From positions 1 to 64,000 of the forward strand of contig JAEACG010000005.1 in the NCBI GenBank assembly GCA_016401345.1: DNA of 64,000 bases, read 5' to 3'. The position numbers were made by a program, and so were the translations under genes. This document shows positions 36,819 to 39,336 of the stretch, in pieces; position 1 is the stretch's first letter; each line of letters starts with the position of its first letter. Source of the DNA: Fictibacillus nanhaiensis (GTDB taxonomy: Bacteria; Bacillota; Bacilli; Bacillales; Fictibacillaceae). The notes under the pieces were generated by a model, which was not told where the DNA came from, ran no database searches, and saw only the letters and a program-made list of their open reading frames with translations.

Positions 36819-37949
36819 ATGAAAACATTAATCCAAAAAGCAAAAGTATATCCGATTACGAGCAGCGAACTTCAGCAAGGAGATGTTCTAGTAGAAAACG
36901 GCAAAATCTCAGCTGTCGAAGCACACATAGAACCGTCAGCTGACATGGAGATCATCCAAGCTGAAAACCTGCATCTTCTTCCAGGATTCATTGATGTTCA
37001 TACTCATTTAGGTTTGTATGATGAAGGAACAGGCTGGGCTGGCAATGATGCTAACGAGACGCACGAGGTGCTCACACCTCACATCCGTGCGATCGACGGC
37101 TGCCACCCTCTAGACATCGCCTTTAAAGATGCTGTTCGTTTTGGAGTAACTACTGCTCACATCATGCCCGGAAGTGCAAATGTTATTGGTGGAACAACCT
37201 CTGTTATCAAAACGCATGGTCATGACATCAGAAAGATGATTATTAAGGAAACAGCAGGACTTAAAATCGCGTTGGGTGAAAATCCAAAACGTATTCATAG
37301 TGGACGTCATAATGATTCCATCACCCGTATGGGAATTATGGGCATGCTTCGTGAAGCCTTCTATCAAGCAAAAGATTCAGCGTATCAAGATAATTTGCGT
37401 GTTGCACCGATCGCAGCTGCTTTAAACCGTGAGATTCCTGTTCGCATTCATGCTCACCGTGCAGATGATATACTTTCGGCTATCCGTTTTGCGGAGGAAT
37501 TCAACTTAGATTTTCGTATTGAACACTGTACAGAAGGCCACCTTATTGCAGACTCATTTAAAGACTTGAACTTGAAAGTAAGCGTTGGTCCTACTCTGAC
37601 ACGAAAGTCCAAAATCGAACTGAAGAACAAATCATGGGAAACGTACCGTATACTATCTGAAAATAATGTTGATGTTTCCATTACGACCGATCATCCTTAC
37701 ATCCCTATACAGTATTTAAACGTTTGTGCGGCAATTGCTGTAAGGGAAGGTTTGAGTGAAAAAAAGGCGCTTGAAGGGATCACCATCGCTCCTGCCAGAA
37801 ATCTTGGAATAGATGATCAAGTAGGCAGTATCGAGCCAGGAAAAGATGCAGATTTATCCCTTTGGACCGAGCATCCGTTCCACTTTTCTGCTACCCCTGT
37901 TATGACCATGATTGACGGTGAAATAATTTACAAAAAATCTACAAAATAA
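36819..37949 (+). CDS. Amidohydrolase family protein
   Basis: A 376-residue metal-dependent amidohydrolase, imidazolonepropionase-like. Metal ligands are recognisable: HTHLG (residues ~62-66), the HAHRAD His (about 211), the following RIEHCTEGH His and the TTDHP Asp (about 288); the C-terminal GSIEPGKDADLSLW motif is typical. The substrate is unknown; cyclic amides or peptides are likely. The start follows a weak TCAGGTGAC site 30 bp after yfhF. Not part of the B. subtilis yfh block. Confidence 0.85.
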   Translation: MKTLIQKAKVYPITSSELQQGDVLVENGKISAVEAHIEPSADMEIIQAENLHLLPGFIDVHTHLGLYDEGTGWAGNDANETHEVLTPHIRAIDGCHPLDIAFKDAVRFGVTTAHIMPGSANVIGGTTSVIKTHGHDIRKMIIKETAGLKIALGENPKRIHSGRHNDSITRMGIMGMLREAFYQAKDSAYQDNLRVAPIAAALNREIPVRIHAHRADDILSAIRFAEEFNLDFRIEHCTEGHLIADSFKDLNLKVSVGPTLTRKSKIELKNKSWETYRILSENNVDVSITTDHPYIPIQYLNVCAAIAVREGLSEKKALEGITIAPARNLGIDDQVGSIEPGKDADLSLWTEHPFHFSATPVMTMIDGEIIYKKSTK

Positions 37950-38081
37950 CTATTTTCTTTTTTGAAAAAATGTCTTATGATACAAATAGAGCAACATGCG
38001 GATTAAGCGAATCCGGAACATTTTAAAAGTCGCTCAAGAGTCAAATACAACATTATTTTCATAAATTAAATATTGAAGCAA

Positions 38082-38141
38082 GGGAAGGCAATTGGTGCGC
38101 CACCAGCTATGACTGGTCCTAGTGGGTTCGATTCCCACCCC
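38082..38141 (+). promoter_or_regulatory. tRNA-like cloverleaf in the GNAT gene leader
   Basis: The sequence folds as a truncated tRNA. Short acceptor GGG (38082-38084) / CCC (38139-38141); two-base linker AA; D-arm GGC/GCC (38087-38089, 38099-38101) with a loop containing the GG pair; anticodon-like stem ACCAG/CTGGT (38102-38106, 38113-38117) with a 6 nt loop; variable region CCTA; and a canonical T-arm, GTGGG-TTCGATT-CCCAC (38122-38138). The acceptor is too short and there is no CCA end, so it is not a functional tRNA gene. The role is inferred to be regulatory. Confidence 0.6.
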
Positions 38142-38197
38142 GAATTAATTTTTATTCTTAATTCGAGGGTGGGGGATACTTCTGCCCTCTAGGAGGG
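38134..38197 (+). promoter_or_regulatory. Alternative hairpins controlling the ribosome binding site of the GNAT gene
   Basis: CCCACCC (38134-38140), used by the T-arm and acceptor, can instead pair with GGGTGGG (38167-38173) in a 15 bp hairpin that also contains CGAATTAA/TTAATTCG. GAGGG (38165-38169) can pair with CCCTC (38185-38189). CCCTC can instead pair with the GAGGG (38193-38197) of the ribosome binding site. The chain forms mutually exclusive on and off states. No T-run follows, so control would be translational. Confidence 0.55.
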
Positions 38198-38203
38198 ATT
38201 AAA

Positions 38204-38770
38204 TTGTTGAAAAAGCGTGATTTATCAGAGAGTCATGTTCTTTACAATTTAATGGTGCACCCAGACGTCTTCCCTTTTGTGCGTCAAAAAGCGGCTTCAT
38301 TCGAAGAATTTCTATTTCTAACGAAGCAAACGATCGAGGAAGAGGACCAAGGAAACATTATTTCCAGAACGATTTTGGATGAGTGGCATAATCCAATCGG
38401 CACCATTAATTTATTTGATGTCCAAGATGGCTATGGCTTTCTTGGCACCTGGATTGGTCAGCCTTACTTCGGAAAAGGGTACAATTCTTTAGCAAAAGAT
38501 GCTTTCTTTTCTGAATTGTTTTATGAAAAAGATATCCACACAATCTTTATGCGTATTCGTAAAGTAAATATTCGTTCACAAAAAGCAGCTGAAAAAATTC
38601 CTTATGTGACGTTAGCCAACGAAACAAGAAAAGATGTTTATAATCAGTTAAACCAAGGTCAGGATATCTATAACCTATATCAGATTGAAAAAGATAACTA
38701 TCTCATGCACATGCTTCGTACGCAATCACAGCCTCTTGAAATTGTGGAAGAACAGTTAAAGGAAGCTTAA
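38204..38770 (+). CDS. GNAT family N-acetyltransferase (RimJ/RimL-like)
   Basis: A 188-residue protein. The GNAT core is seen in NPIGTINLFDV (beta strand 2-4 region), GTWIGQPYFGKGYNSLAKDAFF (acetyl-CoA-binding QxxGKGxNS-type loop, about residues 83-104) and the strand IHTIFMRIRKVNIRSQKAAEKI, which carries the N-x-x-S/A-x-x-x-x-E pattern of RimJ/RimL-like enzymes. The substrate is unknown. The TTG start is 6 nt after GGAGGG, which is embedded in the alternative hairpins described upstream. Confidence 0.82.
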   Translation: MLKKRDLSESHVLYNLMVHPDVFPFVRQKAASFEEFLFLTKQTIEEEDQGNIISRTILDEWHNPIGTINLFDVQDGYGFLGTWIGQPYFGKGYNSLAKDAFFSELFYEKDIHTIFMRIRKVNIRSQKAAEKIPYVTLANETRKDVYNQLNQGQDIYNLYQIEKDNYLMHMLRTQSQPLEIVEEQLKEA

Positions 38771-38807
38771 TACAGGTAATGTGTACACTTACTCTGCGCA
38801 TACTAAT

Positions 38808-38842
38808 GAACATCACTCCTATTGAGTGGTGTTTATTTTTTT
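38808..38842 (+). terminator. GNAT gene terminator
   Basis: AACATCACTC / GAGTGGTGTT stem, 5 nt loop, T-rich tail. Confidence 0.8.
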
Positions 38843-38858: not shown

Positions 38859-38996
38859 ATGGAAAGCCGTAAACAACAAGCAAAAGAAAGAAACAACGAT
38901 CTAACAAAAACACAAGAAATTCTATATAAAGAGGAATTAAAGTCTGCAGAATCAACGGCAGAGACACAAGAGATGACAAACGAAGATAATTCCTAA
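38859..38996 (+). CDS. yfhE: YfhE-like small protein
   Basis: A 45-residue, highly charged peptide (MESRKQQAKERNNDLTKTQE...) with the KTQEILYKEELKSAE core of YfhE-like proteins, and an AAGGAGGT site. It lies next to a yfhD-like gene, as yfhD-yfhE do in B. subtilis. Function unknown; expression in sporulation is plausible. Confidence 0.65.
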   Translation: MESRKQQAKERNNDLTKTQEILYKEELKSAESTAETQEMTNEDNS

Positions 38997-39171: not shown

Positions 39172-39336
39172 GTGGAAAAACGTAACCGAAAGTCCTCATT
39201 GCACAATAATGCTAAAGCTTCTCAAGCCAAAGGACTTGATGTCGAGTACTCAAGTGAATTGGCAGATCAAAACGATCTTGAAGCACAAGCACGTGCACAA
39301 GCCGCTGACCGACGCCAGAAAAAAAGTCGTCGCTAA
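39172..39336 (+). CDS. yfhD: YfhD-like small protein
   Basis: A 54-residue polar protein with the diagnostic GLDVEYSSELADQNDLEAQA and AQAADRRQKK pattern of the YfhD family. The GTG start at 39172 is 6-7 nt after AAGGAGGT; a longer frame in another register covers the same bases without family similarity. Neighbour of the yfhE-like gene. Function unknown. Confidence 0.75.
   Translation: MEKRNRKSSLHNNAKASQAKGLDVEYSSELADQNDLEAQARAQAADRRQKKSRR

What the first reader, a model, noticed from the sequence alone, without database searches (positions are those of the whole stretch)
38082..38203. tRNA-like leader coupled to a chain of mutually exclusive hairpins: a possible new translational switch
The 120 nt upstream of a GNAT gene contain a truncated tRNA cloverleaf with a canonical T-arm (GTGGG-TTCGATT-CCCAC) and a D-loop carrying GG, so the tRNA elbow could form. 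Its 3' strand CCCACCC (38134-38140) can instead pair with GGGTGGG (38167-38173). GAGGG (38165-38169) overlaps that strand and can pair with CCCTC (38185-38189); CCCTC can instead sequester the GAGGG of the ribosome binding site (38193-38197). This gives an ordered on/off logic: cloverleaf formed means the binding site is free; cloverleaf lost means the site is hidden. No riboswitch class known to me has this form. Inference: the cloverleaf is recognised by a tRNA-binding protein, perhaps the GNAT product itself, which would then act on a tRNA or aminoacyl-tRNA.
Basis: partly seen in the sequence, partly recalled or inferred. Interest (0 to 1): 0.87.

Follow-up and report, generated by a model that had tools for sequence, protein, structure and literature searches.

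The report
tRNA-shaped switch before an acetyltransferase gene
In front of one acetyltransferase gene, many relatives of Bacillus carry an almost unchanged stretch of RNA that folds like a shortened transfer RNA and probably turns the gene's translation on when something steadies that fold; what it senses is not known.

Summary
Leader 38082-38141 folds as a cloverleaf matching tRNA without the outer four acceptor pairs. RNAalifold finds the fold unaided on 113 distinct cores, with covariation in T and anticodon arms. A covariance model of it otherwise detects tRNA genes (14 of 14 best weak hits tested). In 348 genomes of the order, 266 have the leader and all 266 the GNAT gene; 4 have the GNAT without it. 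The core is about 98% identical between species whose GNAT third codon positions are 40% identical. Rfam 15 has no credible match. The hairpin chain holds in part: keeping the cloverleaf raises the mean chance of a free ribosome site from 0.19 to 0.47 over 143 leaders, and the full chain occurs in 74 of 143 against 2.9% of shuffles, but 60 of 143 show little change. Prediction favours OFF, so something must stabilise the cloverleaf. 'No known riboswitch has this form' is wrong: yjdF (RF01764) activates translation through a tRNA-like fold. This leader is not that family but probably works like it. Recognition by the acidic GNAT product is unsupported. Verdict: a new, apparently undescribed tRNA-like ON switch; ligand unknown.

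The parts
37947..37982 (+). conserved promoter-like block (-10 TATGAT 37976-37981; -35 position TTTTCT 37953-37958, far from consensus)
   Evidence: motif of 19.2 bits over 96 upstream regions against 8.2-8.6 bits in 5 shuffled sets; placed in the window by eye
38082..38141 (+). tRNA-like cloverleaf (putative aptamer): P1 38082-38084/38139-38141; J1/2 AA; D arm 38087-38089/38099-38101; anticodon-like arm 38102-38106/38113-38117; variable loop 38118-38121; T arm 38122-38126/38134-38138 with T loop TTCGATT 38127-38133
38134..38173 (+). anti-cloverleaf hairpin (OFF): 38134-38148 with 38158-38165 and 38167-38173; uses up the T-arm and P1 3' strands
   Evidence: -22.1 kcal/mol, z -3.9 for 38134-38175; at least 5 of 8 strand bases pair downstream in 136 of 143 leaders against 22.7% of shuffles
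38165..38189 (+). ON-state hairpin (38165-38175 with 38179-38189) that holds the anti-SD away
   Evidence: -15.3 kcal/mol, z -3.5 for 38165-38192; in 120 of 143 leaders at least 3 of the partner bases re-pair downstream, against 13.0% of shuffles
38185..38197 (+). anti-SD CCCTC 38185-38189 pairing with GAGGG 38193-38197 (OFF)
38192..38197 (+). Shine-Dalgarno GGAGGG
38204..38770 (+). GNAT N-acetyltransferase gene (188 aa, TTG start), the only gene family found directly behind the leader
   Evidence: PF13302 E 1.3e-10; found behind 108 of 111 named leaders, the other 3 being cut off by the end of the stretch held, and behind 52 of 52 leaders

Best explanation
A cis-acting ON switch of translation. 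The leader's 60-nt core folds as a shortened tRNA: a 3-pair acceptor stem, D arm, variable anticodon-like arm and canonical T arm, with a D-loop/T-loop elbow (G18-G19 with U55-C56; the elbow is inferred). Left alone the mRNA is predicted to favour folds in which a long hairpin takes the T-arm and acceptor 3' strands and, in many species, CCCTC covers the Shine-Dalgarno site. A trans factor, most likely a small molecule as in yjdF, stabilises the cloverleaf. The freed GAGGGTGG then pairs with CCCTC, the site opens, and the acetyltransferase is made, probably to acetylate that molecule or a related one. Shown by sequence comparison: fold, conservation, exclusive gene link, direction of the predicted switch. 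Inferred: elbow, ligand, physiological role.
For: RNAalifold gives the cloverleaf unaided on 113 cores. Covariation in T arm (3 of 5 pairs) and anticodon arm (2 of 5; 3 of 5 with divergent members). The 14 best weak hits of the model in 398 genomes of the phylum are tRNA genes, aligned from tRNA position 5; ARAGORN calls the leader itself a tRNA-Lys in 2 of 46 relatives. One match in each of the 37 positive genomes and in 20 of 20 genomes at E up to 1e-10. Strong match in 266 of 348 genomes, all 266 with the GNAT. Directly before the GNAT wherever enough sequence is held, with varied further neighbours. SD free 0.47 with the cloverleaf held, 0.19 with it barred; shuffled linkers 0.30/0.24; the two states lie within 5 kcal/mol in 104 of 143. 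Full chain 74 of 143 against 2.9% of shuffles. Precedent for tRNA-like ON control with small-molecule ligands: yjdF.
Against: No ligand or experiment. P1 and the D arm hardly vary, so they have no covariation support; L274 breaks one D-arm pair, and L275/L291 depart at P1 in the alignment because of an extra A in J1/2. 60 of 143 leaders change by 0.2 or less and L092 goes the other way; only 30 of 143 meet the strictest chain test. For the window's own leader (same core as L001, which stands for it in the set) the site is free 0.39 held, 0.17 barred, but 0.36 unconstrained although the cloverleaf is hardly populated, so a third fold frees it partly. L157 (0.00 held, 0.08 barred) and L281, L286, L289, L283, L285 show no switching (the start chosen for L283 is doubtful), so a conserved core can lack a recognisable platform and may have a second role. 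Folding energies ignore the elbow, cotranscriptional folding and Mg2+. GNAT orthologs outside the leader's range do without it.
Confidence: 0.55

Rival explanations
1. A protein that knows the tRNA elbow (a T-arm modification enzyme, another tRNA-binding protein, or the GNAT itself) rather than a small molecule stabilises the cloverleaf; the leader reports on tRNA handling and the GNAT acts on aminoacyl-tRNA or aminoacyl-nucleotides.
For: Elbow residues 18, 19, 53-58 and 61 are tRNA-like and invariant in 113 cores (several of these columns were fixed by the search pattern for the named loci). Nearest solved relative by profile is MccE, E 9.3e-7, the microcin C7 self-immunity acetyltransferase, solved with AMP (title); its action on aminoacyl-nucleotides is recalled.
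Against: GNAT acidic, median pI 5.4; core positions 8, 21 and 48 are A, G, A, not the usual tRNA residues (recalled), which fits a changed core or ligand pocket better than pure mimicry; product binding to the ON state would be positive feedback.
Confidence: 0.22
2. The folded tRNA-like leader acts mainly as a direct translation enhancer that engages the ribosome, with little or no sensing.
For: In PMC9142559 tRNA elements placed upstream of a Shine-Dalgarno site raised translation 2- to 6.3-fold (passage). Cores stay conserved where no switching is predicted (L157, L281, L286).
Against: The chain of alternative hairpins far above shuffles and the near balance of the two states would be pointless; the link to one gene family would be odd.
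Confidence: 0.13
3. Ribosome- or tRNA-mediated attenuation: a uORF starting in the D loop (ATG/TTG) or a T-box-like tRNA sensor.
For: The variable D-loop base gives ATG in 117, TTG in 25 and CTG in 1 of 143 leaders.
Against: Frame not conserved (58/45/40 across the three length classes mod 3), and the peptides printed differ after about four residues. No T-box match at Rfam's gathering score and no terminator-like site in the leader.
Confidence: 0.04
4. A dead tRNA pseudogene or integration scar without function.
For: tRNA-like sequence beside a gene.
Against: Mean core identity 97.6% between species whose GNAT third codon positions are 40.0% identical; not found without the GNAT in 348 genomes; covariation.
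Confidence: 0.01

Closest known systems
azaaromatic (yjdF) riboswitch, Rfam RF01764 (PMC9142559)
   Same: tRNA-like four-arm fold with D-loop/T-loop elbow; variable anticodon-like arm; the folded state frees the Shine-Dalgarno site and turns translation on; the unliganded mRNA hides it (paper).
   Different: Different sequence family (no match either way). yjdF has a ten-base J1/2 pocket, here AA. Its L4 is not the canonical T loop (the paper swaps that in as a mutant), here TTCGATT. In yjdF bases of P4 pair with the ribosome site directly (paper), here a relay of hairpins. Different gene. Both occur in one genome, G018.
tRNA genes
   Same: Cloverleaf from position 5 to 68; A14, G18, G19, G53, U54, U55, C56, G57, A58, C61; 5-nt variable loop counting position 44 (numbering recalled).
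   Different: Only 3 acceptor pairs, anticodon arm of varying length, positions 8, 21 and 48 changed; not called by ARAGORN in the window.
B. cereus pseudo-tRNA tRNA-Other (PMC3399842; abstract and passages read)
   Same: A tRNA-like element inside a longer regulatory RNA.
   Different: A predicted pseudo-tRNA reported only from the B. cereus group, next to a thioesterase gene, with proposed targets elsewhere in the genome.
Guanidine-IV riboswitch and its Gd4v variant (PMC9788692; passages read)
   Same: Can precede GNAT genes.
   Different: Studied by transcription termination, several gene classes, no tRNA-like form in the passages read; no Rfam match here.

Membership tests
azaaromatic (yjdF) riboswitch RF01764 | matches the Rfam covariance model | tested here: not met
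   No RF01764 match up to E 10 in the window; none at gathering in 20 relatives; 1 of 31 genomes has a yjdF RNA, G018, away from the leader, and model R1 gives at most 7.1 bits on that locus
azaaromatic (yjdF) riboswitch RF01764 | extended purine-rich J1/2 pocket | tested here: not met
   J1/2 is AA in 113 of 113 cores, AAA as read in L275 and L291; the yjdF alignment shows ten bases
azaaromatic (yjdF) riboswitch RF01764 | binds azaaromatics and turns translation on | not testable with these tools
   needs binding and reporter assays
tRNA gene | 7-pair acceptor stem, 7-nt anticodon loop, recognised by tRNA finders | tested here: not met
   ARAGORN 0 genes in the window; leader called tRNA-Lys in 2 of 46 relatives; 3 acceptor pairs, anticodon arm of varying length
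tRNA-like fold (structural class) | cloverleaf with D- and T-loop residues for the elbow | tested here: met
   secondary structure and residues; the three-dimensional contact is not tested
T-box leader (RF00230) | Rfam match; terminator/antiterminator | tested here: not met
   no match at gathering; no terminator-like site between the promoter block and 38203
riboswitch (any class) | direct ligand binding changes expression | not testable with these tools
   only the architecture (conserved core, alternative pairings reaching the SD) was tested

The most novel reading that the evidence does not exclude
A second, independent case of the tRNA fold turned into a regulator: a riboswitch class of Bacillales with an invariant tRNA-derived core that senses a small molecule (for example an amine-bearing or aminoacyl-nucleotide antimicrobial) and switches on the one acetyltransferase that disarms it.
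Probability: 0.33. Interest if true: 0.88.

Novelty: new variant of a known kind. Interest (0 to 1): 0.78.

Why it matters
In the papers I read, one tRNA-like ON switch of translation is described (yjdF). A second, unrelated sequence family, present in about three quarters of the genomes sampled from an order (266 of 348) and found before one gene family, would show that the tRNA elbow is a reusable sensor fold. It gives a clean way to ask what the ligand is: one leader, one gene, a small enzyme whose substrate can be screened.

Tried and rejected
Rfam at gathering and at E up to 10: no credible match. Simple sigma-70 scan of 152 upstream regions: no excess over shuffles; the de novo motif replaced it. 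uORF idea: frame not conserved. Operon clue: upstream neighbours differ (amidohydrolase in 47, TIGR01777-like in 36, RecX-like in 34 of 111 loci) and a MATE-like gene lies downstream in 20 of 111 (RecX and MATE are names from recall); none constant. Divergent leaders before GNAT orthologs elsewhere: 26 loci scanned without filters, best 11.6 bits, E 0.26, not upstream of the GNAT on its strand; the only match near the leader's place is a partial 7.8-bit one in L265, E 2.9. These were 4 exceptions of the order and a hand-picked part of the other GNAT genomes. In one search the OFF constraint was wrong (strands left unpaired); one search replaces it and only that is used.

Literature: eight searches on this RNA in open PMC papers showed no tRNA-like leader of a GNAT gene in the listings; subscription journals and supplements were not searched. 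PMC11109978, PMC8632094 and PMC6429828 were only searched for words. PMC9561280 and the MccE papers were seen as search listings only.

Full report
OBSERVATION. The leader 38082-38203 lies between an amidohydrolase gene (36819-37949) and a GNAT gene (38204-38770, PF13302). Folded apart, the cloverleaf 38082-38144 gives -20.4 kcal/mol, the anti-hairpin 38134-38175 -22.1, the hairpin 38165-38192 -15.3 and the SD hairpin 38180-38203 -7.0. Only the two middle hairpins are unusual against shuffles; the cloverleaf needs comparison.

CONSERVATION. A DNA search finds the leader in 37 of 41 genomes, the window's own included, and gives matches in 23 of 299 genomes of the class; one of these 23, G063, is a 23-base piece that reads like a tRNA T arm. 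The titles of the bearers include Priestia, Metabacillus, Neobacillus, Peribacillus, Halobacillus, Oceanobacillus, Alkalibacillus, Psychrobacillus, Domibacillus and Fictibacillus. The GNAT follows in 108 of the 111; in L072, L109 and L127 the stretch held ends before it could appear. It also follows in 52 of 52 leaders (the window's genome is in twice, and the 53rd locus, L053, is the G063 piece). Between 63 orthologs the core, without the anticodon loop, is 97.6% identical on average (minimum 88%), the GNAT protein 58.2%, its third codon positions 40.0%. The scan pattern fixed part of the core, so this identity is somewhat inflated for loci L054-L173.

GENE LINK. The covariance model R1 was run over 348 genomes of the order: 315 have a match at E up to 0.01. 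By my count of the listing 266 have a strong one (E 1.1e-16 or better) and 49 only weak ones (E 3.1e-4 or worse). The GNAT search over the same 348 genomes (E up to 1e-20) gives 270. I compared the two lists by handle; genomes not printed were inferred from missing handle numbers. 266 have both, 4 the GNAT only (G230, G381, G523, G446), 0 the leader only, 78 neither. In the class sample 84 of 299 genomes have a GNAT match at E up to 1e-15, 22 of them with the leader. So the enzyme is wider than the leader, and the leader was not seen without the enzyme. In 26 loci before leaderless or more distant GNAT genes no credible relative of the core was found (in one of them, L272, the GNAT itself was not located).

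tRNA LIKENESS. RNAalifold on 113 distinct cores returns the four-arm cloverleaf without being told. 99.6% of cells pair; T arm 3 of 5 and anticodon arm 2 of 5 pairs show changes on both sides, P1 and D arm none. In a set with 20 low-scoring strong matches and 18 others (35 distinct rows) 98.6% of cells pair and 6 pairs change on both sides; that alignment was fitted to the model, so it leans towards the structure. In 398 genomes of the phylum the model has 6 strong matches and many weak ones. The 14 best weak loci are all tRNA genes by ARAGORN (6 Asn, 4 Gln, one each His, Ser, Arg, Thr), aligned from tRNA position 5; the other weak hits, those among them, were not tested. ARAGORN calls the leader itself tRNA-Lys in L038 and L061, 2 of 46 relatives. 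Invariant in all 113: A14, G18, G19, G53, U54, U55, C56, G57, A58, C61; unlike usual tRNAs: A8, G21, A48 (numbering and usual residues recalled). The elbow residues are kept while the inner core differs.

SWITCH. For 143 distinct leaders I folded the region to 25 nt into the gene with the T arm and P1 either enforced or their 5' strands kept open. The SD is unpaired 0.47 and 0.19 on average; the difference exceeds 0.2 in 82, lies within 0.2 in 60 and is below -0.2 in 1, L092. With shuffled linkers the values are 0.30 and 0.24, and 18% of shuffles exceed 0.2. The two states differ by 2.7 kcal/mol on average in favour of OFF (104 of 143 within 5), against -4.5 in shuffles; unconstrained, the cloverleaf is populated at 0.05 and the SD is free 0.21. 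The window's own leader is not the best case: 0.39 held, 0.17 barred, 0.36 unconstrained (L001). In one search the anti-hairpin takes at least 5 of the 8 strand bases in 136 of 143 (shuffles 22.7%), its partner strand re-pairs downstream in ON in 120 (13.0%), the SD is paired upstream in OFF in 113 (43.6%), the same segment serves both in 78 (3.1%), and the full chain holds in 74 (2.9%). The strictest form, with the SD also nearly free in the ON fold, holds in 30 (0.5%). Among leaders with altered T-arm strands that one search printed, L041, L057, L074, L118, L146 and L115 keep 5 of 5 bases paired downstream, L049 and L050 3, L058 and L141 none. Against the model, seven divergent leaders were tried: L281, L286, L289, L283 and L285 change by 0.05 or less (the start chosen for L283 is doubtful), L284 and L275 gave no value. 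So a conserved core can stand without predicted switching and may do something more than compete for strands.

TRANSCRIPTION. A 36-nt block AA.CTATTTcCTTTTt...aaaaaT.TaGTAT.ATA is found 3-122 nt (median 52) upstream of the core in 96 regions, 19.2 bits against 8.2-8.6 in 5 shuffled sets. In the window, placed by eye, its -10 is 37976-37981. A plain sigma-70 scan shows no excess. A start downstream of 38141 is therefore unlikely, though not mapped.

THE ENZYME. The AlphaFold model has mean pLDDT 93. By fold the first solved proteins are SpeG, then two Pseudomonas GNATs (8gxj, 8gxk, named in PMC9561280 on the toxin PacT; search listing only), with RimL, FdhC and MccE among the first 50; by profile MccE is first, E 9.3e-7. 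Substrate cannot be read from this. The protein is acidic in 64 orthologs, median pI 5.4, range 4.35-7.99, which does not suggest general tRNA binding.

KNOWN SYSTEMS. PMC9142559 reports that the yjdF riboswitch takes a tRNA-like fold with activating ligand, freeing the SD and activating translation, and that its activators are antimicrobial azaaromatics. The present leader shares that working principle but fails the family tests: no RF01764 match, no cross match of R1 to a real yjdF RNA in G018, a two-base J1/2, a canonical T loop. I file it as a new variant of a known kind: a tRNA-like ON switch, not a yjdF member. That it is undescribed rests on Rfam 15 and eight searches of open papers only.

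Noticed in passing
37947-37982 and upstream of 96 relatives: Strongly conserved promoter-like block with a clear -10 but a -35 region (TTTCCT inside a conserved CTATTTcCTTTTt tract) far from sigma-A consensus; perhaps a regulator site.
   Followed up: partly
L248-L257, L271 (GNAT upstream regions of another family of the class): GNAT orthologs there show no cloverleaf but, by eye, a different conserved 5' leader with a GGTTC.AAC piece and a GAGG-rich end, possibly another regulatory RNA for the same gene.
   Followed up: no
38859-38996 and 39172-39336: Two small genes after the GNAT: YfhE-like (E 2.7e-4, below Pfam's cut-off) and YfhD-like (E 2.4e-14).
   Followed up: no
38805-38837: Terminator-like hairpin followed by a T run between the GNAT and the next gene, consistent with a one-gene transcript.
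   Followed up: no
1-111: 5' end of a 16S rRNA gene on the minus strand at the window edge.
   Followed up: no
L273 1501-1604 (genome G018): A yjdF/azaaromatic riboswitch in a genome that also has the GNAT leader.
   Followed up: yes
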